A stretch of 64,000 bases of DNA from the NCBI GenBank assembly GCA_005884115.1, contig VAXW01000005.1, positions 806,001 through 870,000 of the forward strand, written 5' to 3'. The translations under genes were made by a program, and so were the position numbers. This DNA comes from Actinomycetota bacterium (GTDB lineage: Bacteria; Actinomycetota; Thermoleophilia; Solirubrobacterales; Solirubrobacteraceae). The notes beneath the pieces are model-generated. The model ran no database searches and had not been told where the DNA came from. It worked only from the letters and a program-made list of their open reading frames with translations. Below are positions 1,642-29,372 of this stretch, in pieces (positions within the stretch are counted from its first letter, which is position 1; every line of letters starts with the position of its first letter).

Positions 1642-3477
1642 ATGAGCCTCGCCAACACCTCCAGCAGCTTCCGCAGAGTGGGTGGATTCGCCCGCCGCGA
1701 GCAGCACGCGTCTGTTCCCGCGCGCGGCGTCCAGCGCCCGCACGGCACCGCGGCCGCGCACGTCTCCGAGCGCGCGCACCCCGCAGAGCAGGCCTACGCG
1801 GCGGAGCTCGCGCACGCCGAGCGTGTCCACGCCAGAGGCGAGAAGCTCGCGGGTGAGGCGCCGCTGGGGATGGCCCGCGCGGCGCGCGCCGTGCGGGCCC
1901 GCGCGCGGCGCGGCTTCGCTGCCGCTGCTGGTGCTGGCACTGGTGCGCCAGCGCAGGCGGAGGCGCAGCCCAGCGGCGCCGCCGCAGGCGACCCCGGGCC
2001 TTCTTCTGCGCGCGCCGAGCGCCGGCGCTGGATCGCCCTGGCGGTGCTGTGCCTCGGCCAGCTGATGATGGTGCTGGACGCGACGATCGTCAACGTCGCG
2101 CTGCCCTCGATCCAGCGTGAGCTTCACTTCACGCAGCAGAGCCTCACGTGGGTGATGAACGGCTACCTGATCACGTTCGGGGGCTTTCTGCTGCTCGCCG
2201 GCCGCATGGGCGATCTCGTGGGGCGCAAGAAGGTGTTCCTGGCGGGGCTCGTGCTGTTCACCGCCGCCTCCATCCTGTGCGGCGCGGCGTCGGATCAGAC
2301 GATGTTGATCGTCGCCCGCTTCCTGCAGGGGATCGGCGGGGCGGTCGCCTCGAGCGTGATCCTCGCGATCATCGTCACCGAGTTCCCCGGCGCCTCCGAG
2401 CAGGCGCGCGCGATGGGCGTGTTCGCGTTCGTCTCCGCCGGCGGAGGCTCGATCGGGCTGCTGGCGGGCGGCGCCCTGACGCAGTCGCTCGACTGGCACT
2501 GGATCTTCTTCGTCAACGTGCCCATCGGTGCGCTCGCTTTCCTGCTCGGCTGGGTGCTGATCGAGGAGAACGACGGCATCGGTCTGGCCGGAGGAGTCGA
2601 CATCCTGGGCTCGATCCTGATGACGCTCGCCGCGATGCTGGGGGCGTTCGCGATCGTCAAGTCGACCGACTACGGCCTGCTCTCGGCGCGCACGCTGGGC
2701 ATCGGCGGGGCATCGCTTGCGCTGCTCGCGGCCTTCCTCGTGCTCGAGTCGCGGCTCGCGAACCCGATCATGCCGCTGCGCATCCTCAGGCTGCGCCTGC
2801 TGATGGGCTCGAGCGTCGTGCGCGGGCTGCTAGTGACGGGGATGTTCTCCGCCTTCTTCCTCGGCTCGCTGTACCTCGAGCGCGTGCTCTCCTACAACGC
2901 GATCGAAACCGGTCTCGCGTTCCTGCCGCTGACCGTAGCGATCGGCGCGCTCTCGATCGGGCTCTCGGCGCGCGCGATGGCGCGCTTCGGTCCGGTGCGG
3001 CTGCTCGTCGGCGGCCTCGCCCTGATCATCGCCGGGCTCTTGACGCTCGCCGGGCAAGGGGCGCACGCGAGCTACTTCCCCGGCCTGTCCATCGCCTTCC
3101 TGCTACTGGGCCTGGGCGCGGGCGCGTCCTTCTTGCCGCTGCTGACGGTCGGCATGTCGGACGCGCCACGCCGCGATGCGGGGCTAGCGTCGGGCATCGT
3201 CAACGTCTCGATCCAGCTGTTCGGCGCCATTGGCCTGGCCACGCTGGGGACGATCGCCACCGACCACACGAAGGCCCTGAGCGCGGCCGGCCACTCGCTG
3301 CCGGCGGCGCTGATCGGTGGCTACCACCTCTCATATCTGGTCGCCGCCGCGTGCGTGGCCGTCGGGGTCCTCGCGACGCTGCTGCTGCTCGGCCCGCCGA
3401 CTAGCGCGAACCGGCAGCAGAGCGAGGAGGCGAGCGAGGCGGTGCGGGCGGGTGAGCCCGCAGCTCAGCCCGCTTGA
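1642..3477 (+). CDS. MFS multidrug transporter, EmrB/QacA (DHA2, 14-TM) family
   Basis: About 611 residues. Motif LDATIVNVALPSI (helix 1) is the DHA2 signature and GRMGDLVGRKKVF is motif A between helices 2 and 3. Hydrophobic segments continue to near residue 590, consistent with 14 helices and drug:proton antiport in the inner membrane. The start at 1642 has a good ribosome site (GGAAGGAG, 1630-1637); an in-frame ATG at 1603 lacks one. Unusually, roughly 125 residues rich in Ala, Arg and His precede the first helix (which begins at RRRWIALAVLCLG), a much longer cytoplasmic leader than normal. Either this is a lineage-specific extension or the true start is further in. Divergent from the MarR gene, which probably regulates it. 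Confidence 0.88.
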   Translation: MSLANTSSSFRRVGGFARREQHASVPARGVQRPHGTAAAHVSERAHPAEQAYAAELAHAERVHARGEKLAGEAPLGMARAARAVRARARRGFAAAAGAGTGAPAQAEAQPSGAAAGDPGPSSARAERRRWIALAVLCLGQLMMVLDATIVNVALPSIQRELHFTQQSLTWVMNGYLITFGGFLLLAGRMGDLVGRKKVFLAGLVLFTAASILCGAASDQTMLIVARFLQGIGGAVASSVILAIIVTEFPGASEQARAMGVFAFVSAGGGSIGLLAGGALTQSLDWHWIFFVNVPIGALAFLLGWVLIEENDGIGLAGGVDILGSILMTLAAMLGAFAIVKSTDYGLLSARTLGIGGASLALLAAFLVLESRLANPIMPLRILRLRLLMGSSVVRGLLVTGMFSAFFLGSLYLERVLSYNAIETGLAFLPLTVAIGALSIGLSARAMARFGPVRLLVGGLALIIAGLLTLAGQGAHASYFPGLSIAFLLLGLGAGASFLPLLTVGMSDAPRRDAGLASGIVNVSIQLFGAIGLATLGTIATDHTKALSAAGHSLPAALIGGYHLSYLVAAACVAVGVLATLLLLGPPTSANRQQSEEASEAVRAGEPAAQPA

Positions 3478-16688: not shown

Positions 16689-16937
16689 TCAGACGAGCAC
16701 GGCCCCCTCGTCATACAGCTTGATCACCCGCACGGCTCCCTCCGGGGCCGCGTCGAGGCACAGCCTGCAGAGCACGCACTCGTCGAGGTTCTGCTGCACG
16801 ATCTCGAGCGCGCCGCCGTCGCTCGTCTGGGCGAAGATATCGACGGGGCAGGCTTCGGCGAGCGTGGCCGCCAGCGCTGCGTCGTCGGCGACCTGGTCGT
16901 CGACCTCGACGGCGATGAAGAGGCCGTCGGACCTCAT
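16689..16937 (-). CDS. small ferredoxin-like protein (FixX-like cysteine pattern)
   Basis: 82 residues with exactly four cysteines: C30 followed by Pro (EACPVDIF), and C54, C57 and C60 in ECVLCRLC. This can hold one [4Fe-4S] cluster. The C-P first, CxxCxxC later order is that of the FixX-like ferredoxins that work with ETF:quinone oxidoreductases. Its ATG (16937) overlaps the stop of the CoA-ligase alpha subunit by four bases, so the two are translationally coupled and it is the last gene of the lyase-ligase operon. An electron-transfer role tied to the acyl-CoA pathway is inferred; no partner FixC is in the window. Confidence 0.7.
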   Translation of the reverse strand: MRSDGLFIAVEVDDQVADDAALAATLAEACPVDIFAQTSDGGALEIVQQNLDECVLCRLCLDAAPEGAVRVIKLYDEGAVLV

Positions 16938-17881
16938 CGAACGCCCGCTCCGGCGGAGGTCGAAGACGCGCGCTCGGCGATCCTGGCGCGGATCATCTCG
17001 GGGATCTCCTCGATGCGCTCGGCCACGGCGATGCCGGCGGACGTGAGGCGCGCGATCTTCTCGGAGGCTGTGTCCTCCTTGCCTTCGACGATCGTGCCGG
17101 CGTGCCCGAAGCTCATTCCGGGCATCTCGTCCATGAAGCGACCGGCCATGAAGGCGACGACAGGCAGCCGTGATTGGTTTGCCAGCACCCACTGCGAGAG
17201 CTCGGCCTCCATGCGCCCGCCGGGCTCGGTATAGATCACGATTCCCTGTGTCTGCTGGTCGGCCTCGAACAGAGGCATGAGCTCGGCGTAGGTCGAGCCG
17301 ATGATGGCGTCGCCGCCGATCGACACGGCCGTCGACTGGCCCAGGCCGGCTGCGCTGAGCGTCGAGGACATCTCCGTGGTCATGCCGCCCGAGCGCGAGA
17401 TCACTCCGATCGGCCCAGGCGTGTACGCCTGCGAGGCGTTCTTGGCCGGGCCCCCGATCCCGCCCATCTTGACGACGTCGGGGACGATGATGCCGAGGCA
17501 GTTGGGCCCGATGATGCGCGCGCGGCGCATCCCCGCGAGGTCGACCATCTGGGCGACGTCGCGGCGGGGGATGCGCTCGGTGACGACCACGATCAGCTTG
17601 ATCTGGTTCTCGATCGCCTCGAACACGGCGTCCTTGGTGAAGGCGGGGGGGACGGTGACGACGGAGCCGTCGATCGGCCCGCCGTGGTGCTCCACGGCCT
17701 GGGCGACAGTGTCGAACACGGGCACGCCGTGCACCTCGCGCCCGAGCCGTCCAGGCGTGACGCCGCCGACGATCTTCGCGCCGGCGCCGTAGTCGAGGCA
17801 CTCGCGTACAAGATTAACGGCCTCGCGGCCGGTGATCCCCTGCACGATGAAGGTGGTGTCGGCGTCGATCAATATGGACAT
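16934..17881 (-). CDS. CoA ligase alpha subunit (SucD/malate-CoA ligase MtkB family)
   Basis: 315 residues. The CoA-binding Rossmann domain starts at once (ILIDADTTFIVQGITGREA), followed by the ligase domain with the phosphohistidine loop GMSFGHAGTIVEG, H260 being the phosphorylated residue. The GGAGGGA site 7 bases before the ATG at 17881 fixes the start. It pairs with the beta subunit gene just upstream. SucCD makes succinyl-CoA; the related MtkAB makes malyl-CoA. Because a malyl-CoA lyase heads this operon, malate-CoA ligase activity is attractive, but sequence alone does not separate the two. Confidence 0.85.
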   Translation of the reverse strand: MSILIDADTTFIVQGITGREAVNLVRECLDYGAGAKIVGGVTPGRLGREVHGVPVFDTVAQAVEHHGGPIDGSVVTVPPAFTKDAVFEAIENQIKLIVVVTERIPRRDVAQMVDLAGMRRARIIGPNCLGIIVPDVVKMGGIGGPAKNASQAYTPGPIGVISRSGGMTTEMSSTLSAAGLGQSTAVSIGGDAIIGSTYAELMPLFEADQQTQGIVIYTEPGGRMEAELSQWVLANQSRLPVVAFMAGRFMDEMPGMSFGHAGTIVEGKEDTASEKIARLTSAGIAVAERIEEIPEMIRARIAERASSTSAGAGVR

Positions 17882-17957
17882 GTCCGTCCCTCCGTCCGGC
17901 CGGCACCGTTGATCGCGACGCTCGCCATCTTCGCCCGCGTGAGCGCCCCTTCGGCGC

Positions 17958-19172
17958 TCATCGGGCCGCGACCCCTTCGATCTTCTCGACGGCTCGGCGC
18001 GCGGCCTTGTTGAGTGAGACGCTGCGGTCGGCGTACTCGACGCCGTAGCGCTCGAGGATCTTGAAGCCCTCCTCCTCCCACGCGCCGGGGATGCGGAAGA
18101 TGGCGATCTTCTCGGCGGGGTCGTGGCCGAGCTCGAGGCAGGCTTTGATGACACCGCGCGCGACGATGTCGACGCGCGTGTTGGAGACGATCGACATCAT
18201 CACCGCGATGCGCTCGACGCCGGGCTTGGAGAGCACCAGCTTGGCAAGGCCGCAGGCCTTGGCGACCGAGGGGTTGCCTCCGATCTCGCAGTAGTTGGCG
18301 GGTCGGCCGCCGTGGGCGCGGACGGCATCGAACAGCGTCAGCGAGCCGCCTCCGGCGCCGATCACGAGCCCGAGGTTCCCGTCGAACTCGGTCACGTTGC
18401 CGGCCACGCCGCGGTGGTCTGAGGCGTCGATCTGCTCGCCGGCGATCTCGAAGGGCGTCGGCTCGCGCGCCTGGCGCGTCTCCTGCTCGCCCACGCCGAG
18501 CTCGGCGAGCAGTCGCTTGTGCCGGCCGCGGGCCTCGTTCTCGATCTCCATGTGCGCGTCTAACGCGATGAAGGACCCGTCGGCTAGGCGCCCGAGCGGG
18601 TTGATCTCGGCGAGCGTCATGTCGTTCTCAACGAACAGCTTCGCCAGGCGCGTGAGGATCGGCGTCAGGCGCGTCAGCGCCGAGCCCGAGACGCCGGTCG
18701 CGGCGATCGCCTCCTTGGCCTGGAAGTCGGAGAAGGGGAGGATGTTCGAGAAGTGCCGGCGGGAGACCTTCTCGGGCTGCTCCTCGGCCACCTGCTCGAT
18801 GTCGATCCCGCCGACCGGCGAGAAGATCATCACGGGTTGCTTTCGCGTTCCGTCCCAGACGACGCCCGCGTAGTACTCCTGCTCGACATCGGCGCGCGGG
18901 TCGACGAGCACGCCGCGCGGCTCCTGCCCGCCGATCTCGAGCGCAAGGATCTCCCGCGCGTGCGCTTCGGCCTGCTGGGGGTCATCGGCGAACTTGACTC
19001 CACCCGCCTTCATGCGTCCGCCGGAGAGGACCTGCGACTTGATGACGGTGGGCCCGCCGATGCGCTGCGCGATCTCGCGCGCCTGCGCGGGGTTGGTGGT
19101 GAAGCCGTAGTCGGTGACGGGGATGCCGGCGCGCTTTACGATCTCGCGCGCCTCGTACTCGAAGAAGCGCAT
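17958..19172 (-). CDS. CoA ligase beta subunit (SucC/malate-CoA ligase MtkA family, ATP-grasp)
   Basis: 404 residues. The N-terminal ATP-grasp domain opens MRFFEYEAREIVKRAGIPVT, with VIKSQVLSGGRMKAGGVKFA for nucleotide binding and LAEINPLGRLADGSFIALDAH for the magnesium site. The CoA-ligase domain contains NVTEFDGNLGLVIGAGGGSLTLFDAVRAHGGRPANYCEIGGNPS, the C-terminal signature. It forms a heterodimer or heterotetramer with the downstream alpha subunit (76 bases away). It lies about 60 bases after the malyl-CoA lyase-like gene in the same direction. Somewhat longer than textbook SucC (about 390). Confidence 0.85.
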   Translation of the reverse strand: MRFFEYEAREIVKRAGIPVTDYGFTTNPAQAREIAQRIGGPTVIKSQVLSGGRMKAGGVKFADDPQQAEAHAREILALEIGGQEPRGVLVDPRADVEQEYYAGVVWDGTRKQPVMIFSPVGGIDIEQVAEEQPEKVSRRHFSNILPFSDFQAKEAIAATGVSGSALTRLTPILTRLAKLFVENDMTLAEINPLGRLADGSFIALDAHMEIENEARGRHKRLLAELGVGEQETRQAREPTPFEIAGEQIDASDHRGVAGNVTEFDGNLGLVIGAGGGSLTLFDAVRAHGGRPANYCEIGGNPSVAKACGLAKLVLSKPGVERIAVMMSIVSNTRVDIVARGVIKACLELGHDPAEKIAIFRIPGAWEEEGFKILERYGVEYADRSVSLNKAARRAVEKIEGVAAR

Positions 19173-19232
19173 GCGGGCGGGAAGCCTATAAGGCCGGGCG
19201 CGTCGTTTCGGCTCGTGGCTGCTGGCCGACGC

Positions 19233-20321
19233 CTACACGGCCGCGGGCGCCGGCTCGTCGGCGCGCGCGGGCGCCAGCCCGTACGCCTCCGCCAGCTCTG
19301 GGTCCTTGCGCGCGAGCATTTCGGCGAGGTTGACCATCACCTTGCACTGCTTCCAAGTGGCATCGTCCTGCATCTTGCCGTCGATCATGTGCACCCCGCG
19401 CCCGTCAGGGATCGCCTCGATTACCTTTTTCGCGAACGCGACCTCCGCGGGTTCGGGTGAGTAGACGCGCTTTGCGATCGGAATCTGCGCCGGGTGTAGA
19501 GACCAGGCCCCGACGCAGCCGAGCAGGAAGGAGGCGCGGAACTGCGTCTCGCAGCCGACCTCATCGCCGATGTCGCCGTAGGGACCGTAGAAGGGGAGCG
19601 CTCCCACCGAAGTGCACGCGTCGACCATGCGCGCGATCGAGTAGTGCCACGGATCCTGCTGGTAGCTGGGGCGCGGAGCGTCGGGCTCGTCGGGGTCGGG
19701 GTCGGCGATCGTGCGGTAGCCAGGGTGGCCGCCGCCGACGCGCGTGGTCTTCATGCGCCGCGACGCGGCCAGGTCAGCGGGCCCGAAGCTCATGCCCTGC
19801 ATGCGCGGGCTCGCGCAGGCAATCTCCTCGAGGTTGGCCACCCCCTGCGCGGTCTCGAGCACGGCGTGCACGAGGAGCGGCCGCTCGAGCCGGGCCTTGG
19901 CCTCGAGCTGGGCGAGCAGGCGATCGACGTAGTGGATGTCCCACGGGCCCTCGACCTTGGGGATCATCACGACCTCGAGCTTGTGGCCGATCTGTGTCAC
20001 CAGTTCGGTGAGGTCGTCGAGGACCCAGGGCGAGGCGAGCTCATTGACTCGCGTCCACAGGGCGGTTTCGCCGAGGTCCATCTCCTGCCCGACGCGGATC
20101 AGCCCCGCGCGGGCGGCCTCCTTGTTGTCCACCGAGACGGCGTCCTCGAGGTTGCCGAGCAGGATGTCGACCTTGGGCGCTAGCTCGGGCGCCTTGGCGA
20201 CCATTTTCTCGTTTGAGAAGTCCATGAAGTGGATCATCCGCGAGGGCTTGAAGGGAATCTCCCGCGAGGGCTCAGGCGCGTCGATGGCTAGGGGCTTGTA
20301 GAAGTCGCGGGGGCTGCGCAT
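19233..20321 (-). CDS. malyl-CoA/beta-methylmalyl-CoA lyase-type aldolase (HpcH/HpaI, CitE-like)
   Basis: About 362 residues, longer than CitE (about 280) and near Mcl1 enzymes. It shows [91 protein letters not shown] and [17 protein letters not shown]. The ED and E...D residues coordinate Mg(II) and the R of TRVN binds the CoA thioester. In the ethylmalonyl-CoA pathway Mcl1 cleaves beta-methylmalyl-CoA to glyoxylate and propionyl-CoA and handles malyl-CoA. It heads an operon with a two-subunit CoA ligase and a ferredoxin. The start is 20321 (ATG) or 20327 (GTG); no ribosome site is seen. Confidence 0.8.
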
Positions 20322-20482
20322 GCACACGATGCTATTGACTTTTTTGGGGAGGCAACTGCGCGCGAGCCCGCCCGGCGCTCCGCCTCGCCGGCCTCAGCGC
20401 GCGCTCGCCGGGACGCCGCGAGTGTCCGCCGACGGCTGCTTTGCGCTTGTGCGCAAGGGATCAAGGTGCTAGGAAAGAGAGC

Positions 20483-21433
20483 ATGAGCGGGCGGGGTGTG
20501 CTGCCCATGGTCAGGATGATCGCTCTGACGGGGCTCGCCGCGTGCGCGCTGCTGGCTGCGGCAACGGCCGCCGCGCACACTGGCTCGCTGCGGGCCTGGA
20601 AGCAGAACGTGAGCGCGCCCGCGCAGTTCGATCTCACGCTGGCGGAGGTGCGCTTCAGACGGGCGGGGCATGCAGTCCGTGGGGGCGCGAGTCGGGCGCG
20701 GCTCGCGCGCTCGATCCACGTGGCTTTGGCGGGACCCACGGGGCTCGACTACGTTGCGGCGGCGGCCACCCGCTTCGGCGTCCGCACGCGACCACGCTTG
20801 CTCGTGCTCGTGATCAACAGGCGCCCGCGTGGCTCTCTTGCGCCGGATCTCGCTCGCATCGGCCTCACTGTTACCGCGCCGCGGAGCCTCGGCGCGCCGC
20901 GGCTCTCGCAGGTCAGCGACCCGTTCACGCGCCCACCCCCGAGCGGGGCGGTCGCGGTGCTCTGCGATCTGCGGGTTCCCGGCCCATCGCTCTCGGCGGC
21001 CGCGCTGCGCCCCCTGCTCAGGCGAGGCGCTGCCCTCGCAGGCTTCAGCGCGCAGGCTGCGATCGCCCAGGCCTACAACGCGGTCTGCGGCAAGCCGTAT
21101 GAGGACGCCTTTCGCCGGGCGGTCACCCGCGGCTCGCTGCCCACATGCGAAGCCGGGGCGCCGAAGTCGCTGCTGTGCTGCCCGCCCAACGCGATCTGCG
21201 CGCCGCCGCCCTGCGCGACCTGTCCCTGCCAGGCCTGCGACTGCTCCCCTTGCGCGTACGCGACCTGTCCCTGCCAGGCCTGCGCCTGCACATGCGGGTG
21301 CCCGCCCTGCGGCTGCACGGCGTGCGCGTGCGCAAACCCGCCGTGTCTCGCCGGCGGGCAGAGCGGAGCCGGAGCGGCGAAGGCCTCGATCGCGTGTCCG
21401 CTTCAGGCGACGCCCATCGTCTGCCCGCTCTGA
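20483..21433 (+). CDS. secreted protein with an extremely cysteine-rich C-terminal tail
   Basis: 316 residues. A signal peptide (VRMIALTGLAACALLAAATA) leads into about 200 residues of unremarkable soluble domain. The last 95 residues (222-316) contain 23 cysteines, 20 of them within 57 residues (232-288), mostly as CxC, CC and CxxC separated by Pro, Ala and Gly. The octapeptide ATCPCQAC occurs twice, encoded by an identical 24-base repeat (21215-21238 and 21260-21283). The ATG at 20483 follows AGGAAAGAG. Metal binding (metallothionein-like), a heavily cross-linked wall or coat tail, or a redox buffer are possible. I know no family with this layout. Confidence 0.72.
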   Translation: MSGRGVLPMVRMIALTGLAACALLAAATAAAHTGSLRAWKQNVSAPAQFDLTLAEVRFRRAGHAVRGGASRARLARSIHVALAGPTGLDYVAAAATRFGVRTRPRLLVLVINRRPRGSLAPDLARIGLTVTAPRSLGAPRLSQVSDPFTRPPPSGAVAVLCDLRVPGPSLSAAALRPLLRRGAALAGFSAQAAIAQAYNAVCGKPYEDAFRRAVTRGSLPTCEAGAPKSLLCCPPNAICAPPPCATCPCQACDCSPCAYATCPCQACACTCGCPPCGCTACACANPPCLAGGQSGAGAAKASIACPLQATPIVCPL

Positions 21434-21516
21434 GGCGGCGGCCGGAGGGGCTGGCGGCAAGCGCAGGCACTAGAGTGCTGCTCGGCGATCAGAGCCCGCA
21501 GGAGGCTGCTACAGCG

Positions 21517-22101
21517 ATGAGCGACACCACCGTCGAGACAGATCAGGCCGCGCGCGAGGCCAGCGGCGCGCACCCTTATGGGCGCTACCTGGAGGAGTTC
21601 GAGGTCGGCGCGGTGTACAAGCACTGGCCCGCCAAGACGGTGACGGAGGCCGACGACCACCTCTTTTGCCTGATCACGATGAACCACCATCCGCTGCACA
21701 TCAACGACGTCTACGCGGCCGCCTCTCAGCAGGGACGCAACGTGGTCGTCGGTCCGCTGGTGTACTCGCTGGCGCTGGGCATGTCGGTGAGCGACGTGAG
21801 CGGCAAGGCGATCGCCAACCTCGCCACCGAAGAGCTCAAGCACCCGGCGCCGGTCTTCCACGGGGACACGCTGTTCTGCGAGTCGGAGGTGCTGGAGAAG
21901 AAGGAGTCTCAGTCAAAGCCCGATCGCGGCACCGTGAAGGTGCACACGCGCGTCCTCAACCAGGACGGCGTGCTGGTCGCGGAGTTCAAGCGCCTGGTGC
22001 TAGTGCCGCGCAAGAATCCCGGCCCACAGGCGGCCGAGCAGGGGGAGCTGGCGAGCTCGGAGGCTGTCGGCGCAAAGGCCGAGGGCTCGGTCGTCGAGTA
22101 G
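21517..22101 (+). CDS. MaoC-family (hot-dog fold) acyl-CoA hydratase
   Basis: 194 residues, one hot-dog domain: [30 protein letters not shown] at the front, [39 protein letters not shown] containing the hydratase-2 style H-P-L-H-x-N/D motif, and [18 protein letters not shown]...[28 protein letters not shown] lies 11 bases before the ATG at 21517. Such enzymes hydrate enoyl-CoAs. With a malyl-CoA lyase-type gene divergently oriented about 1.2 kb away and Ccr/Ecm in the window, hydration of mesaconyl-CoA to beta-methylmalyl-CoA is a good candidate reaction. The known mesaconyl-CoA hydratases are larger, so this remains open. Confidence 0.78.
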
Positions 22102-22166
22102 GGCAAAAGTCCCGCAAACGGCCAGGATCCTCGTCGCCTGGCAGGCGTGCGATAGGCTCTGCGCAC

Positions 22167-22185
22167 CGCCCGAGAGGGCGTTTTT
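22167..22185 (+). terminator. short intrinsic terminator-like hairpin
   Basis: CGCCC-GAGA-GGGCG (22167-22180) followed at once by TTTTT (22181-22185). It lies 66 bases after the MaoC gene stop and 86 bases before pckG, so it either ends the MaoC transcript or acts as an attenuator in the pckG leader. T-runs are rare in this GC-rich sequence, which supports function. Confidence 0.6.
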
Positions 22186-22270
22186 CCGTTCCCAGCCGGA
22201 TGGCCCCGGAACGGAGCGCCGCGACGGCGCGCACAGGAAAGAAGCCACACGAGGGAGCCGCTGCCGAGCC

Positions 22271-24073
22271 ATGAGCACCACCGCATCCGCACCGACCACC
22301 AACGAGCGCCTGCTGGCATGGGTCCACGAGGTCGCGGCGCTCACGCAGCCGGATGCGGTGCACTGGTGCGACGGCTCGGCCGAGGAGTACGACCAGCTGT
22401 GCGCGGAGCTGGTGGAGGCGGGGACGTTCACGCGGCTCTCGCAGGCCAAGCGCCCAAACTCCTATCTGGCCCTGTCTGACCCGGGCGACGTGGCGCGGGT
22501 GGAGGATCGAACGTTCATCTGCTCGGCCAGCGAGCAGGAGGCGGGTCCGACGAACAACTGGCGCGACCCCGAGGAGATGCGCGAGGTGCTCAGGGAGCTG
22601 TTCGAAGGCTCGATGAGGGGACGCACGATGTACGTGGTGCCGTTCTCGATGGGGCCGCTTGGCTCTGACAAGAGCCATGTGGGGGTGCAGCTGACCGATT
22701 CGGCGTATGTGGCGGTGAGCATGCGGATCATGACGCGCATGGGCCAGGGCGCGCTGGATGCACTCGGCGGAGGGGAGTTCGTGCCGTGCTTGCACTCGGT
22801 GGGCATGCCGCTGGCGGACGCGGCCGAAGATGTTCCCTGGCCGTGCAACGCGGAGAACAAGTACATCGTGCACTTCCCCGAAACGCGCGAGATCTGGTCC
22901 TACGGTTCGGGCTACGGCGGCAACGCGCTGCTCGGCAAGAAGTGCTTCGCGCTGCGCATCGCCTCGGTGATGGCGCGCGACGAGGGCTGGATGGCCGAGC
23001 ACATGCTGATCCTCAAGCTGACCTCGCCGGAGGGGGAGGTCAAGTACATCACCGGCGCGTTCCCGAGCGCCTGCGGCAAGACCAACCTCGCGATGCTGAT
23101 TCCGACGCTCGAGGGGTGGACGGTGGAGACGATCGGCGATGACATCGCCTGGATGAAGTTCGGCGAGGACGGTCGCCTGTACGCGATCAACCCGGAGGCC
23201 GGCTTCTTCGGCGTCGCCCCCGGAACCGGAGAGCACACGAACCCCAACGCGATCAGGACGATCGCGCGCAACTCGATCTTCACCAACTGCGCCCGCACTG
23301 ACGACGGCGACATCTGGTGGGAGGGCCTGACGGTGGAGCCGCCCGCGCACCTGACCGACTGGCGCGGTGAGGACTGGACGCCCGCGGCCGAGGCGTCGGC
23401 GGCGCACCCCAACGCGCGCTTCACCGCGCCCGCCGCGCAGGACCCCGCGATCGCGCCCGAGTGGGAGGATCCCAAAGGGGTGCCGATCGATGCGATGCTC
23501 TTCGGCGGCCGGCGCTCGACGGTGGTTCCGCTCGTGACCGAGGCGCTCGACTGGGAGCACGGGGTGTTCTTGGGCTCGATCATGAGCTCCGAGAAGACGG
23601 CTGCCGCGGCCGGCAAGGTCGGCGAGCTGCGCTTCGATCCCTTCGCGATGCTGCCGTTCTGCGGCTACAACATGGCCGACTACTTCGCGCATTGGCTCGA
23701 TGTGGGGCGCCGCGAGGGTGCGAAGCTGCCGAAGATCTTCTACGTCAACTGGTTCCGCAAGGACGCAAGCGGGCGCTTTCTGTGGCCCGGCTTCGGCGAG
23801 AACTCGCGCGTGCTTGCGTGGGTGTTCGCGCGCTGTGCGGGCCATGGCGCGGCCCGCGAGACGGCCATCGGGCGCGTGCCTCCGGTCGGCCGCGAGGGCA
23901 TCGACACGCGCGGGCTCGACGTCTCGGACGAGGACATGGCCGAGCTCCTGCGCGTCGAGGTGCACGAGTGGCAGCAGCAGCTGCCCCATTTCCGCGAGCA
24001 CTTGGCGAAATTCGAGCGCCTGCCGGCGGAGCTGCACGAGCAGCTCGAGGCGCTCGAGCAGCGCTTGAGCTGA
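22271..24073 (+). CDS. pckG: phosphoenolpyruvate carboxykinase (GTP)
   Basis: 600 residues, the GTP-class length. The kinase-1a P-loop [13 protein letters not shown] (about 264-276) holds the reactive cysteine characteristic of [18 protein letters not shown] is kinase-2, and [11 protein letters not shown]-like and [25 protein letters not shown] segments bind substrate, metal and guanine. It converts oxaloacetate and GTP to PEP, CO2 and GDP in the cytosol, the entry to gluconeogenesis from C4 acids. GAGGGAG is about 13 bases before the ATG. Placement beside malyl-CoA lyase and MaoC genes fits growth on acetyl-CoA-yielding substrates. Confidence 0.97.
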
Positions 24074-24902: not shown

Positions 24903-25898
24903 ATGCGCCGTTTCGCGCTTGTGGGGGTGTCGCTGCTCGCCCTGTTCATCACCGGCTCGGCGCCGTCGAGCGCGGGCGCGGCGTTCACCCAATGTCCGGC
25001 GGTGGGCTCGGACACGAGCTGTCAGTTCTTGATCACGATCACCGACACCGGCCCGTCGGTTGCGCAGGACAGCACGCAGGGGCCCTACGAGGCGTCCGAC
25101 GACTCGCTCATCGGCGTGCAGAACAGCTCCTCCAAGTCGATCGCCGCGCTGCCGCTGTCCTCGCCGGGGACCTCGCTGTTCGGCTTCGAGTTCGACGGGA
25201 TCTGCGACCCTGGCACGGGGCCGCTTCCGCCGGGCTGTGTTCCGGTGCCCGGCTCGCCGGCCGGCACGACATGCGGCGCCCAAAGCGTTGCATGCTCGTT
25301 CCCACCGCCCGCTGGGGAGCCGGCCAACTACACCGAGGCGGGCTCGACCGGGGCCCTGCCATGGCCCAACGGCGACCGACAGAACGGCTATGAGGGCCCA
25401 ACGTCGTGGTTCTCGGGCATCTCGGCGGATAGCAGCGGCGGCACCGTGAACTTCTCGCCCGCGATCCCGCCCGGCGGGTCGACCTACTTCTCGCTCGAGG
25501 CACCGCCGAGTGCGGCGGCGATCAGGGTCGGCACTCCGGTCACGACAACGCCCGCGACGAGGCCGAAAGTGCCTCCGGCGTTCGGCCGCAACGGCGTGAT
25601 CAAGGGCCTCCCCTCCACGCACGTCTGCCTCTCAAAACGTCACTTCATCATCCACATCCGCCGCTATAAGGGCATCTCCTACGCGGAGGCGCTCGTGTTC
25701 CTCAACCGGCGCAAAGTCGGCGTCGTCAGAAGCCGCGCGGGTCAGTTCTCCAGTCCGATTAACCTGCGCAATCTGCCGGCGGGAACCGTTCGGGTGAAGA
25801 TCACCGTGATCACGACGACCGGCTCGATCATCTCTGGCACGCGCACCTACCACACGTGCCACAAGCGGCTCCCGTTCCTCGGCCCGCCGCGTCTCTGA
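24903..25898 (+). CDS. secreted protein of unknown function, C-terminal basic beta domain
   Basis: 331 residues from the ATG at 24903 (GAGGAGG just upstream). The signal peptide MRRFALVGVSLLALFITGSA ends near SAGAA. The N-terminal half has cysteines in QCPAVGSDTSCQF and is rich in Ser, Pro and Gly (PSVAQDSTQGPYEASDDSLIGVQNSSSKSI). A linker VTTTPATRPK leads to a basic C-terminal domain of about 110 residues with two cysteines (THVCLSKRHFIIHIRR, TYHTCHKR) that looks like an Ig-type or carbohydrate-binding sandwich. Probably cell-surface. No family recognised. Confidence 0.72.
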   Translation: MRRFALVGVSLLALFITGSAPSSAGAAFTQCPAVGSDTSCQFLITITDTGPSVAQDSTQGPYEASDDSLIGVQNSSSKSIAALPLSSPGTSLFGFEFDGICDPGTGPLPPGCVPVPGSPAGTTCGAQSVACSFPPPAGEPANYTEAGSTGALPWPNGDRQNGYEGPTSWFSGISADSSGGTVNFSPAIPPGGSTYFSLEAPPSAAAIRVGTPVTTTPATRPKVPPAFGRNGVIKGLPSTHVCLSKRHFIIHIRRYKGISYAEALVFLNRRKVGVVRSRAGQFSSPINLRNLPAGTVRVKITVITTTGSIISGTRTYHTCHKRLPFLGPPRL

Positions 25899-25926: not shown

Positions 25927-27510
25927 CTATCGCTTTGCGACCTTGAGCGTGGCGGTATCGGTCGTCCGCTGGCCGTCGGGGCTTCGCAGCGTGAGCATCA
26001 GCTTGTAGGTGGCGCCGCGAGTGAGCCCCGTCAGGGTGATGCTGGCGCGCCCAGCCGCGAGCGCGCGGGTGACTGAGATCGTGCGGCGCGGCGCCCGCCT
26101 GTGGTCGTGCGCGGCTGCGTGTCGATGGGCGTGCGCGCCATGACCGCAGAGGCGGGAGCCGGGCCTCGCCCGGCGCGTCGCGGTCAGCGTGGCGGTCGCA
26201 GGCGCGCTCGAGAACACTGGCACGCGCGCCCGCGTTCCCGAGCTGCGAAGGCGCGCGAGCGCGATGCCACCGACGAGCCTCGTGGCCGGTTGGGCGGGGC
26301 CTGTGCCCGGGAGCGCGCTGATGCTCACCGCGGCGCTGGTGGCCACGCCTTCATCGACGCTGTCGCGGGCGCTCACGACGCACGTCAGCTGTTCGCCGGC
26401 GGCTTCGCTCGGCGGAACGAACCACCTTCCGGTCGCGCCTTCGACCGTGCCCGATCCCGCGAGCTCCCACTGGTAGGAGAGCGAGATCGGCCCGGTGCCG
26501 CTCCATTCTCCGGGGTTGCACCGAAGCGGCGCGCCCACCTGCGCGCTGCCTTCGATGGAAGGCGGCGAGGTGACCACCGGGTGGGGACTGACCGTATCCA
26601 CGGCGAGCCCCTCGGGGGTGTCTGAGCCCGTGCTGAAGAGCGTCTGCGCTTCGCTGCCGTCGAGGTTCGAGGTGGCGATGCGGCGTGCGGCGGCTTCGCC
26701 CCAGTAGAGCCGGCCGGCCTGGGGGTCGACCACGAGGCCGCCTTCGAAGGCCCCGATCGCTTCTTCTCCGCCTCCGCGTTCGATGAGCGGTTGCGCTTCG
26801 CTGCCGTCGAGCTTTGCGCTGGAGATCAGGTTCCTTTCTTTTTTGCCGCCTTTGACGTCGAGGGTCATCCAGTACAGCCGGCCGTGCACGGGGTCGACGG
26901 CCACGCCGAAGGGCGAGACCTGATTGATGATCAGTTCGCTGACAAGCGGTTCGACCGCCATCGCCGCGCTCCTGATCGTCCCGGTGGGCAGATCGGCCCA
27001 GTACATCTGCGCGGCTGCGGGATCGAGCGCGATGAAGCCGCGCGCCTGGCCTTTGACGAGCAGTTCCACTTCGGTGCCGTCGAGCGAGGCTCGCTTGATG
27101 CCGGCCCGGTCGGTCCAGTAGAGCCTGCCCGCCGCGAGGTCGAGCGCGATGCCAAGCGGTTCGCCGGAGGGATCGATCAGCAGAGGGTGCGCTTCGCTTC
27201 CGTTCAGGTTCGAGCTCCAGATGGTGCTGGCGTCGGTGTCCGTCCAGTACATGCGGCCAGAGGCGACGTCCAACGCGAGGCCGTCCTCGAACCCGATGGG
27301 CTGGAACTGCAGCGTCTGCAGCGCGCTGCCGTCGAAGGCGGCGCGGTCGATTCCCGTTCCTCCTTCCCCGAGAAAGGCGGTGAAGTAGACCTTCCCCTGC
27401 GCCGCAGCCGGGGCGAGCGCGAGCGCGGCGAGAAGTGCGGGCAGTACGGCGAGCGCCACGCGCGCGCGCGCGTGCCGGCGGCCTGTCCTCGCAGCTTGCG
27501 AACGGGGCAT
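25927..27510 (-). CDS. secreted YWTD-repeat beta-propeller protein with Ig-like domain
   Basis: 527 residues. The signal peptide (RARVALAVLPALLAALALA) is followed by LDL-receptor class-B type repeats: GRMYWTDTDAS, GRLYWTDRAG, AQMYWADLPTG, GRLYWMTLD and GRLYWGEAA, each about 45 residues apart with LDGSEAQ/LNGSEAH linkers, building a propeller (about 40-310). Residues about 315-400 (PPSIEGSAQVGAPLRCNPGEWSG...QWELAGSG...LTCVVSARDS) form an Ig-like domain, and a basic linker with an HGAHAHRHAAAHDH cluster precedes a final beta domain. The His cluster may bind metal. Probably a surface binding protein. Located 74 bases downstream of the DipZ gene on the same strand. Confidence 0.82.
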   Translation of the reverse strand: MPRSQAARTGRRHARARVALAVLPALLAALALAPAAAQGKVYFTAFLGEGGTGIDRAAFDGSALQTLQFQPIGFEDGLALDVASGRMYWTDTDASTIWSSNLNGSEAHPLLIDPSGEPLGIALDLAAGRLYWTDRAGIKRASLDGTEVELLVKGQARGFIALDPAAAQMYWADLPTGTIRSAAMAVEPLVSELIINQVSPFGVAVDPVHGRLYWMTLDVKGGKKERNLISSAKLDGSEAQPLIERGGGEEAIGAFEGGLVVDPQAGRLYWGEAAARRIATSNLDGSEAQTLFSTGSDTPEGLAVDTVSPHPVVTSPPSIEGSAQVGAPLRCNPGEWSGTGPISLSYQWELAGSGTVEGATGRWFVPPSEAAGEQLTCVVSARDSVDEGVATSAAVSISALPGTGPAQPATRLVGGIALARLRSSGTRARVPVFSSAPATATLTATRRARPGSRLCGHGAHAHRHAAAHDHRRAPRRTISVTRALAAGRASITLTGLTRGATYKLMLTLRSPDGQRTTDTATLKVAKR

Positions 27511-27584: not shown

Positions 27585-29372
27585 CTAGCCGAAGGTGAAC
27601 GCGTATGCCGAGATATCTGCAGCGAAGCGCAGGCTCAGACGGTGGCGGCCCTCGCGCGGCAGCGACACCAGCGAGTACAGCCGCTGGCGGCGCACCGTCA
27701 CCTGTCCGCCGCGCACATCGCCGCCGGCCGCCGGGGAGCGGATCGGCCTGCCGTCGAGCAGCACCTGTACCGCGAGCGGGCGTTCGTGCGGCGAGCTCAT
27801 GACCAGGTACACGTCCTTGGCCAGGAACTCGACGTCGATGCCCGCTCCCGCGCTGGCGGTGGCGGGCTGTGCTGCGACGTTCCAGCTGCCGCTGTAGGCG
27901 AACTCGTTGAGCGCGAGGCGGCCGCTGGCGGGAGGGCCGTAGTCGTGCCTCCCGGACCGTGGCGCGCTTAGCCAGCCCTGCGCTCGCGCGGTGCCCAGGT
28001 AGGTCTCGGGCGTTGCCAGTTCAGACGGCGTGATGACTCCTTGAGGACGTCCGCGCCCGCCGAGGCGAGATCCCGCTTCGGCCAGCAGCGCGCGGATCGC
28101 GGTCTCGGTCTTCGCGTAGTCGCCCTCCCCGAAGGCCGTGTAGCGAACGCGTCCGCTGGCATCGATCAGGTAGTCGGCGGGCCAGTACTGGTTTCCGTAT
28201 GCGTTCCACGTGCCCATGTTGTTGTCCTGGACGACCGGGTAGCGCAGGCCGAACTGGTGGATCGCTCCCCTGACGTTGCCGGCGTCGCGCTCGAAGGAGA
28301 ACTCCGGCGTCTCGACGCCGACGATCGTGAGACCGTCGCGACGGTAGGTCGCGTCCCAAGCCTTCAGGTATGGGAGCGTGCGGATGCAGTTGATGCACGT
28401 ATATGTCCAGAAGTCGATCAGGACGACCCGCCCGCGCAGCGCGCGCAGCGAGAGCGCGCGCCCCGCGGGGGTGTTGAACCAGTCCTGGGTGTCGGCGAAT
28501 TCGGGCGCGCTGCCGAGGTCGGGGAGCGTGCTGGCGGTCGCGAGCAGGCTCGCCCGGCTCGCCCCGCGCGCGAGCGCGCGCACGCTGCTCGCGCCGCCGT
28601 GGCACGCGGAGGACCCGTTGGCGGGGGCGAAGCGTGGACGGTGGCCCGTGAGCTCGTGCAGGCGTCCGGTGACCGCGCTCGAGCACTCGAGCGAGGCCGT
28701 GAGATTCACGTCGGGGATGCTTTCGGCGACGAACTGGTCGAAGTTGACGTCGAGGTTGGTCACTATGGCCACGGCCGTGGCGAGCATGATCGCGCCAAGC
28801 GTGCGCTGCAGCGCGAGGCCACGGCCGGCTCGGCGAGCGCGGTCGAGCAGGCGCCGCCCACCGAGGCACAGGGCGAGCAGCACGAGCGCGGAGCCCGCTG
28901 CGTAGGCGATCGCGATGACGATCGTCCTCCCGGACGCCGCGCTCACAGAGATGACAGCCGCGAGGACCGGGCTCGCGCACGGGGTGTAGACGAAGCCCAG
29001 CGCGCCTCCGACGAGCAGTCCGGAGGCGAAGCCCTCGCCGCGCGATCGCGGGCCGAAGCGCGCGAGTCGCGAGAGCGGCGCCTCCAGGCGTGCGGCAATT
29101 CCGGGGAGCAGCAGCGCCAGCCCGAACGCGAGCAGGACCGCGACGGCGAGGTCGCGCAGGGGATCGCTTCCCAGCCCGACCCCGTCGACCACGCTCGCGA
29201 GGCCGACGATCGTGATCGTGAACGTGATCGAGAGCCCGAGCACGATGCCCAGCGGCCGGCGCCGGCCGCCCACTCCGCCGGCCGATAGCAGCGCCGGCAG
29301 CACGGGCAGCACGCACGGCGACAGCGCGGTCCCGGCCCCCGCCAGCAGCGCGAACCCCACGAGCACGATCAT
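27585..29372 (-). CDS. dipZ: DipZ-type fusion: CcdA transporter, thioredoxin domain, C-terminal beta domain
   Basis: 595 residues. Residues 1-205 are a CcdA/DsbD-type membrane domain with the two cysteines C20 (ALSPCVLPVLPAL) and C132 (VYTPCASPVL) that carry electrons across the membrane. A TlpA-like thioredoxin domain (about 290-440) has the motif WTYTCINCIRTLPYL, the same TCINC-type active site as mycobacterial DipZ. Residues about 460-595 form a beta-sandwich with a lectin-like look. It moves reductant to extracytoplasmic thiol proteins. TACGCT ends 7 bases before the ATG at 29372. The cysteine-rich exported protein at 20.5 kb would be an obvious type of client. Confidence 0.88.
   Translation of the reverse strand: MIVLVGFALLAGAGTALSPCVLPVLPALLSAGGVGGRRRPLGIVLGLSITFTITIVGLASVVDGVGLGSDPLRDLAVAVLLAFGLALLLPGIAARLEAPLSRLARFGPRSRGEGFASGLLVGGALGFVYTPCASPVLAAVISVSAASGRTIVIAIAYAAGSALVLLALCLGGRRLLDRARRAGRGLALQRTLGAIMLATAVAIVTNLDVNFDQFVAESIPDVNLTASLECSSAVTGRLHELTGHRPRFAPANGSSACHGGASSVRALARGASRASLLATASTLPDLGSAPEFADTQDWFNTPAGRALSLRALRGRVVLIDFWTYTCINCIRTLPYLKAWDATYRRDGLTIVGVETPEFSFERDAGNVRGAIHQFGLRYPVVQDNNMGTWNAYGNQYWPADYLIDASGRVRYTAFGEGDYAKTETAIRALLAEAGSRLGGRGRPQGVITPSELATPETYLGTARAQGWLSAPRSGRHDYGPPASGRLALNEFAYSGSWNVAAQPATASAGAGIDVEFLAKDVYLVMSSPHERPLAVQVLLDGRPIRSPAAGGDVRGGQVTVRRQRLYSLVSLPREGRHRLSLRFAADISAYAFTFG

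What the first reader, a model, noticed from the sequence alone, without database searches (positions are those of the whole stretch)
20483..21433. Exported protein with 23 cysteines in its last 95 residues
The tail has 20 cysteines in 57 residues as CxC/CxxC/CC with Pro, Ala and Gly between, and includes a duplicated octapeptide from an exact 24-base repeat 45 bases apart. The N-terminal 200 residues look ordinary. Outside the cell such a tail would need oxidation or metal loading; the window also encodes a DipZ-type extracytoplasmic thiol system. This could be a new metal-binding, spore/coat-like or redox-buffer protein.
Basis: seen in the sequence. Interest (0 to 1): 0.68.

Follow-up and report, generated by a model that had tools for sequence, protein, structure and literature searches.

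The report
Exported protein with cysteine-repeat tail
An uncultured actinobacterium (family Solirubrobacteraceae) encodes an exported protein of an undescribed, lineage-restricted family whose flexible tail has grown into an unusually dense run of cysteines, most likely used to form disulfide links outside the cell, although metal binding is not excluded.

Summary
The gene at 20483-21433 (+) encodes 316 aa with 26 Cys: 23 in the last 95 residues, 20 in residues 232-288. The tail is in the right frame: the nearest orthologue (58% identical) has Cys/Pro in the same frame between conserved flanks (CCPPNAIC ... IACPLQxxPIxCPL), and dN/dS is about 0.3 in domain and tail.

The protein belongs to a small family with no Pfam, NCBIfam or PDB match. 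I found it in 9 Solirubrobacteraceae genomes of three genera, always beside the same MaoC gene, and missing from that spot in most congeners. Its N-terminal domain is modelled as a beta-sandwich with two invariant cysteines. Orthologue tails are Pro-rich with 2-10 Cys. Only the window copy has a (CxCxx)n array, keeping 15 of 16 repeat cysteines while other positions differ.

Exported-like proteins of this genome favour even Cys counts (33:6, against 89:107 for cytosolic-like), and all seven complete orthologues are even. I therefore favour a disulfide-bonded or cross-linking tail. The window copy is odd (25), so metal binding stays open. An endospore-coat role is unsupported (no Spo0A in 24 genomes); the DipZ link is weak. 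No function was tested directly.

The parts
20467..20474 (+). TGCTAGGA element just before the start codon, containing the likely Shine-Dalgarno sequence (AGGA, 20471-20474)
   Evidence: Seen in sequence. The same TGCTAGGA lies before the start in five of six same-genus orthologues (the sixth, L019/L005, has a variant) and in the G197 orthologue of another genus.
20483..21433 (+). Gene for the exported cysteine-tail protein, 316 aa plus stop
   Evidence: ORF; orthologues and purifying selection.
20483..20575 (+). Signal peptide, residues 1-31, likely cleaved at ATAAA|HTG
   Evidence: Read from sequence; every complete orthologue starts with a comparable hydrophobic N-terminus. No signal-peptide predictor was available. 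The LAAC lipobox-like stretch is not kept in all orthologues.
20579..21142 (+). N-terminal domain, about residues 33-220, predicted beta-sandwich followed by two helices
   Evidence: AlphaFold2 with 7 sequences, mean pLDDT 80.9, pTM 0.83; no significant fold match.
20963..20965 (+). Cys161 codon, invariant in all nine family members
   Evidence: Alignments.
21086..21088 (+). Cys202 codon, invariant in all nine family members; likely disulfide partner of Cys161 (inferred)
   Evidence: Alignments; distance in the model could not be measured.
21146..21430 (+). C-terminal Cys/Pro/Ala tail, residues 222-316, 23 Cys, predicted disordered
   Evidence: pLDDT 30-45 over the tail.
21176..21199 (+). Conserved CCPPNAIC motif opening the tail, residues 232-239
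   Evidence: CCPPNAIC or close variants in L016/L017/L018/L020; shortened LCCPPC in G197. DNA pattern found only in family members in 232 genomes of the order.
21214..21239 (+). First copy of the exact 26-bp repeat (ATCPCQAC)
21259..21284 (+). Second copy of the exact 26-bp repeat, 45 bp (three 15-bp units) downstream
21221..21337 (+). Degenerate (C-x-C-x-x)n pentapeptide array, residues 247-285: CPCQA CDCSP CAYAT CPCQA CACT CGCPP CGCTA CACAN
   Evidence: Cys pairs spaced by 5 observed 13 against 6.2 expected in shuffles, p = 1.5e-4.
21392..21430 (+). Conserved closing motif ACPLQATPIVCPL, residues 304-316
   Evidence: ACPL..P..C in L016, L017, L018, L020 and in variant form in others.
19233..20327 (-). 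Neighbour: CitE-like HpcH/HpaI aldolase-family gene, divergent; left border of the variable site
   Evidence: Pfam PF03328, E 6e-27; synteny.
21517..22101 (+). Neighbour: MaoC-like / mesaconyl-CoA hydratase-like gene; right border of the variable site
   Evidence: Pfam PF01575 and PF19315; adjacent to the family gene in all nine genomes.
27585..29372 (-). DipZ-type protein (DsbD_TM + AhpC-TSA/Redoxin + Thioredoxin_10), about 6 kb away; possible but unproven partner
   Evidence: genus distribution.

Best explanation
The gene encodes a Sec-exported, extracytoplasmic protein of a lineage-restricted orphan family: a compact beta-sandwich domain (stabilised by an invariant Cys pair) carrying a flexible Pro/Ala/Cys C-terminal tail. 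In the family the tail cysteines work in pairs as disulfides, within the tail and possibly between molecules or to other wall or surface proteins. The tail thus acts as an oxidised, protease-resistant, uncharged stalk or cross-linking arm. In the window's lineage the tail lengthened through 15-bp-unit duplication into a (CxCxx)n array, and the cysteines were retained, giving a much more densely cross-linkable tail. Shown: exported-type N-terminus, family, synteny, frame, selection, repeat structure, even-Cys bias of exported proteins in this genome. Inferred: disulfides in this tail, inter-molecular linking, surface location, biological purpose.
For: Frame and coding: closest orthologue has C-P-rich tail in the same frame with conserved flanks, dN/dS 0.35 (domain) and 0.29 (aligned tail). 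Tail cysteines are a family trait: 10, 8, 8, 8, 6, 4, 2 in orthologues. Even parity: in a 400-kb sample of this genome exported-like proteins with Cys are 33 even to 6 odd, cytosolic-like 89 to 107 (Fisher p = 6e-6), the signature used for disulfide-bonded exported proteins (about 64% even in mycobacteria, PMC12421883). All seven complete orthologues have even mature Cys counts (12, 10, 10, 4, 10, 6, 8). VKOR, the actinobacterial disulfide-forming oxidase, is found in 21 of 24 genomes of the genus. Array units keep Cys at 15 of 16 sites while codons 2, 4 and 5 vary, so cysteines rather than spacers are constrained. The tail is Pro-rich, nearly uncharged and predicted disordered.
Against: The window copy itself has an odd mature count (25), so at least one thiol is unpaired unless linked to another molecule; the simplest cause is one TGC-to-TAC change in unit CAYAT (inferred). 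Even parity of 7/7 is unremarkable given the 85% background (0.85^7 is about 0.3), so it shows agreement, not proof, and the orthologues are not independent. VKOR was not found in the window's own assembly (87.8% complete). Short CxC and CxxC spacings also suit metal thiolates. No expression or biochemical data exist. The gene is absent at its usual site from most congeners, so it is dispensable there.
Confidence: 0.5

Rival explanations
1. Extracytoplasmic metallothionein-like tail: the (CxCxx)n array binds soft metals such as Cu(I), Zn(II) or Cd(II) as thiolate clusters, either for scavenging or for protection of the envelope.
For: Density and CxC/CxxC/CC spacing resemble metallothioneins; few aromatic residues in residues 232-288 (one Tyr); odd Cys count in the window copy. 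A bacterial metallothionein, PmtA, has been reported at the cell surface of Pseudomonas aeruginosa (PMC11237414).
Against: No metallothionein family matches, even with the tail alone at E up to 10. No His and few acidic or Lys residues in the array. Orthologues with 2-8 spread tail cysteines in a Pro-rich stretch cannot form such clusters, so this would be an innovation of one lineage. No metal-related gene was recognised among the immediate neighbours. Exported cysteines in this organism tend to be paired.
Confidence: 0.22
2. Repeat drift: the tail is a tolerant, low-complexity linker, and the cysteine array of the window copy is a by-product of slippage in a GC-rich Pro/Cys stretch with no cysteine-specific role.
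For: Exact 26-bp repeat and 15-bp periodicity point to slippage or duplication; tail length and Cys number vary widely among orthologues; the gene is lost repeatedly. Patterns of this kind elsewhere in the phylum mostly look like unused or antisense frames of repeats.
Against: Among units that share only 7-12 of 15 bases (apart from one identical pair), Cys is kept at 15 of 16 sites. Aligned tail codons are under purifying selection. Tail cysteines and closing motifs are conserved in other genera.
Confidence: 0.2
3. Reductant-dependent thiol buffer or substrate: the tail cycles between thiol and disulfide, kept reduced by the DipZ-type protein encoded 6 kb away.
For: DipZ-type gene is close by and present in all seven same-genus genomes that carry the family gene, against 9 of 17 without it (one-sided Fisher p = 0.03).
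Against: DipZ sits about 6 kb from the CitE gene in G016, which lacks the family gene, so proximity is regional synteny; draft genomes make absences unreliable. The gene is not in an operon with DipZ.
Confidence: 0.05
4. Spore-coat or exosporium-like structural protein.
For: Cys-rich self-assembling proteins are typical of such layers (for example CdeC, CotY; PMC7677010, PMC4950064).
Against: No Spo0A in 24 genomes of the genus, while the control Bacillus subtilis rings; the protein has a signal peptide, whereas endospore coat proteins are generally made inside the mother cell without one (general knowledge).
Confidence: 0.03

Closest known systems
Disulfide-bonded exported proteins of Actinobacteria (DsbA/VKOR substrates; PMC12421883)
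   Same: Exported; even Cys counts in orthologues and in the host's exported proteins; VKOR in the genus.
   Different: Known substrates have one or a few disulfides in folded domains; here 23 Cys lie in a predicted disordered repeat tail. The family is unrelated in sequence to any Pfam or PDB entry.
Bacterial metallothioneins (SmtA/BmtA, MymT, PmtA)
   Same: High Cys density with CxC and CxxC spacing.
   Different: Those are small whole proteins; this is a repeat tail on an exported domain, without His and without Pfam match.
Ena endospore appendage subunits (beta-sandwich with Cys-bearing flexible connector; PMC8619143)
   Same: General plan: beta-sandwich plus flexible arm with a CC motif that could link subunits (in Ena, Cys10 and Cys11 bond to other subunits).
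   Different: Arm is C-terminal here; no Pfam match; the fold hit to a spore appendage (9n0b) is meaningless by its scores (prob 0.12, TM 0.12, rmsd 22); no Spo0A in the genus. Analogy only.
Cys-rich spore-surface proteins (CotY, ExsY, CdeC)
   Same: Cys-rich, proposed to assemble through disulfides.
   Different: No sequence relation found, no Spo0A in the genus, and a signal peptide is present.

Membership tests
This orphan family (beta-sandwich + Cys/Pro tail, Solirubrobacteraceae) | Homologous N-terminal domain with invariant Cys161 and Cys202 | tested here: met
   Nine members; both Cys invariant in all.
This orphan family (beta-sandwich + Cys/Pro tail, Solirubrobacteraceae) | Location beside the MaoC gene, usually between CitE-like and MaoC | tested here: met
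   CitE-gene-MaoC in seven same-genus genomes and G102; beside MaoC in G197.
This orphan family (beta-sandwich + Cys/Pro tail, Solirubrobacteraceae) | Cys-bearing Pro-rich C-terminal tail | tested here: met
   Tails with 2-23 Cys; opening CCPP(NAIC) and closing ACPL motifs in most.
Metallothionein | Sequence match to a metallothionein family model | tested here: not met
   No Pfam hit for the full protein (E up to 1) or the tail alone (E up to 10).
Metallothionein | Binds metal through Cys thiolates | not testable with these tools
   Needs purified protein and metal analysis.
Disulfide-bonded exported protein (works-like class) | Export signal | tested here: met
   Signal peptide by reading of the sequence in all complete members; no dedicated predictor run.
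Disulfide-bonded exported protein (works-like class) | Even number of mature cysteines | tested here: inconclusive
   Even in 7/7 orthologues, odd (25) in the window copy.
Disulfide-bonded exported protein (works-like class) | Host has disulfide-forming machinery | tested here: inconclusive
   VKOR in 21/24 genomes of the genus and all 11 best ones, but not found in the window's own 88%-complete assembly; strong even-Cys bias in its exported-like proteins.
Endospore coat / Ena appendage | Host forms endospores (Spo0A) | tested here: not met
   0 of 24 genomes; control B. subtilis positive.
Endospore coat / Ena appendage | Sequence or fold match | tested here: not met
   No Pfam match; no Foldseek match at E <= 0.001.
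Lipoprotein | Conserved lipobox Cys at the end of the signal peptide | tested here: not met
   LAAC in the window copy is followed by further hydrophobic residues, and two orthologues (L020, L022) have no Cys in that region.

The most novel reading that the evidence does not exclude
An undescribed class of extracytoplasmic proteins in which a beta-sandwich domain displays a tunable (CxCxx)n cysteine-repeat arm, expanded by 15-bp duplication, that acts either as a covalent cross-linker of a non-spore surface layer or as a secreted soft-metal trap in a non-endospore-forming actinobacterium.
Probability: 0.25. Interest if true: 0.65.

Novelty: new variant of a known kind. Interest (0 to 1): 0.42.

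Why it matters
It documents, with close orthologues for comparison, how a plain Pro-rich linker with a few paired cysteines turned into one of the densest cysteine arrays in an exported bacterial protein. It also gives a direct test case for whether exported cysteine arrays are oxidised cross-linkers or metal binders. The family is uncharacterised and would add to what is known of the cell surface of uncultured Solirubrobacteraceae. Its practical importance is unproven.

Tried and rejected
Wrong frame or assembly artefact: rejected by orthologue frame conservation and dN/dS. Antisense ORF 20288-21460: treated as a mechanical by-product of high GC, since the plus frame is conserved. Mobile or phage origin: no match in plasmids or phages by protein search, none confirmed in viral contigs; fixed locus with vertical-looking patchy loss. 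L008 hit (G050): a chance match inside an UppP-like membrane protein. Search for other CxCxx-array proteins across 296 genomes of the phylum: 24 genomes matched, and of the 20 loci read the frames look like unused or antisense frames of repeats, none a convincing exported homologue. Fold searches with the full model (pLDDT 58) and with the better domain model (pLDDT 81): no PDB or viral match at E <= 0.001; the best viral match (A0A6G5Y0L2, prob 1.00, TM 0.56 on the target, E 3.7e-3) is an unnamed 127-aa protein and gives no function. An early script read minus-strand loci in the wrong orientation; it was redone. Literature on Cys-rich tails in this group: nothing relevant found.

Full report
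WHAT IS THERE. The gene at 20483-21433 (+) encodes 316 residues beginning with a signal peptide (MSGRGVLPMVRMIALTGLAACALLAAATAAA|HTG). It has 26 cysteines, 23 of them in the last 95 residues and 20 in residues 232-288. The next-best 57-residue stretch in any six-frame reading of the 64-kb window has 9. In 355 genes called on a 400-kb sample of the same contig the best has 9 and the next 6, with Cys at 1.07% of residues.

IT IS A REPEAT OF FIVE. The dense part reads CPCQA-CDCSP-CAYAT-CPCQA-CACT-CGCPP-CGCTA-CACAN, that is (C-x-C-x-x)n with one shortened unit, encoded in 15-bp units; the 45-bp repeat equals three units. Cysteine pairs five apart number 13 against 6.2 expected when the same residues are shuffled (p = 1.5e-4). 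Cys is present at 15 of 16 repeat Cys positions, while codons 2, 4 and 5 differ from unit to unit, and most units share only 7-12 of 15 bases. The single exception, Tyr259 (TAC), is one transition away from TGC. This pattern suggests that the cysteines, not merely the repeat, are retained.

THE FAMILY. Searching with the N-terminal part alone gave six true orthologues in the same genus (an eighth hit, L008, is a chance match in another protein). A profile of the family found two more, in other genera of the same family, G197 and G102. No more were found in 232 genomes of the order or 399 of the class, although those large scans scored only 6-10 candidates per genome, so distant members may be missed. 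The named records behind six of them are MAGs of Solirubrobacterales/Solirubrobacteraceae. No Pfam, NCBIfam or PDB sequence relative was found, nor any in plasmids, phages or viral contigs.

LOCUS. In seven same-genus genomes and G102 the gene lies between a divergent CitE-like gene and a MaoC / mesaconyl-CoA hydratase-like gene; in G197 it lies beside MaoC. In most other congeners CitE and MaoC are directly adjacent, about 0.1-0.2 kb apart. Two others have something else there. On a CitE tree presence needs at least five changes (few branches are well supported), which fits ancestral presence with repeated loss and gives no sign of a mobile element. A TGCTAGGA element just before the start, containing the likely ribosome-binding site, is kept in most members, including the G197 one.

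THE TAIL IN RELATIVES. Orthologue tails open with CCPPNAIC or a variant, continue as a Pro/Ala-rich linker and close with CxPCxPxPGxACPLxxxPxxC in most. Their tail Cys counts are 10, 8, 8, 8, 6, 4 and 2. The nearest relative (L002/L016, 58% identical) has CCPPNAMCLPPPCPPCPCGVGPC ... IACPLQSPPIACPL, matching the window copy's CCPPNAICAPPPCATCPCQAC ... IACPLQATPIVCPL in the same frame. dN/dS against it is about 0.35 in the domain and 0.29 in the aligned tail codons. Only the window's lineage shows the large array.

THE DOMAIN. With seven sequences the mature N-terminal part folds confidently in AlphaFold2 (mean pLDDT 80.9, pTM 0.83) as a beta-sandwich followed by two helices. In the full-length model the tail is disordered (pLDDT 30-45). 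Fold searches found nothing at E <= 0.001. Cys161 and Cys202 are invariant in all nine members, plausibly a disulfide (inferred).

HOW IT MOST LIKELY WORKS. To ask what happens to exported cysteines in this organism, I counted cysteines in proteins with and without a signal-like N-terminus in the 400-kb sample. Exported-like proteins with cysteine are 33 even to 6 odd; cytosolic-like ones 89 to 107 (Fisher p = 6e-6). With a different choice of cleavage site the exported count is 31 to 10. Even-number bias marks disulfide bonding in exported proteins; in mycobacteria about 64% are even and DsbA/VKOR makes the bonds (PMC12421883). The seven complete orthologues all have even mature counts (12, 10, 10, 4, 10, 6, 8), though that is what the 85% background alone would often give. 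VKOR occurs in 21 of 24 genomes of the genus, including all 11 of the best ones, but not in the window's own 88%-complete assembly. The best-supported reading is an extracytoplasmic beta-domain with a flexible, uncharged, disulfide-bonded arm that may link molecules. Steps shown: export-type N-terminus, frame, family, selection, repeat, parity bias. Steps inferred: disulfides in this tail, cross-linking, surface role.

WHAT STAYS OPEN. The window copy has 25 mature cysteines, an odd number, so one thiol is free, bonded to another molecule, or lost its partner through the Tyr259 change. CxC/CxxC spacing would also suit metal thiolates, so a metallothionein-like role is a real rival, although no metallothionein model matches even the isolated tail. 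A purely neutral repeat is less likely because the cysteines are retained, but cannot be excluded. Spore-coat function is not supported: no Spo0A in 24 genomes. The DipZ-type gene at 27585-29372 is real, but its co-occurrence is weak evidence (p = 0.03, draft genomes), and it sits near CitE in G016 without the family gene.

LIMITS. Genes and signal peptides were called by simple rules of my own, most genomes are drafts, and the repeat has not been checked against reads. No function was tested.

Noticed in passing
window 16934-24073: A cluster of SucD/SucC-like, CitE-like (HpcH/HpaI), MaoC/mesaconyl-CoA hydratase-like and GTP-dependent PEPCK genes, largely conserved in the genus. It looks like a malyl-CoA / C4-acid route (malate thiokinase + malyl-CoA lyase type) leading to PEP; worth a separate look.
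   Followed up: partly
G000 (whole assembly): VKOR (PF07884) was not found in the window's genome although 21 of 24 congeners, including all 11 high-quality ones, have it. It may lie in the missing 12% or be truly absent.
   Followed up: no
L034, reverse-complemented coordinates about 2750-3060 (G011): At the same CitE-MaoC junction G011 carries a different short gene (about 95 aa, MTVIRIVQPPNVTADVYDAVNAEIG...), so this junction seems to accept different inserts.
   Followed up: no
L043, reverse-complemented coordinates about 2730-2910 (G019): The CitE-MaoC gap of G019 holds at least three copies of a roughly 20-bp repeat (GCCTGCCTGTGGGCGCGGC), REP-like.
   Followed up: no
L054 1346-2319 (G102): The G102 orthologue's reading frame runs on past its short Cys tail into the MaoC gene in another frame, suggesting a frameshift, lost stop or gene overlap.
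   Followed up: no
window 25927-27510: Exported protein with LDL-receptor class B / SMP-30-like propeller repeats, next to the DipZ-type gene.
   Followed up: no
window 24903-25898: Second exported-looking protein without any Pfam match and with several cysteines, near the finding.
   Followed up: no
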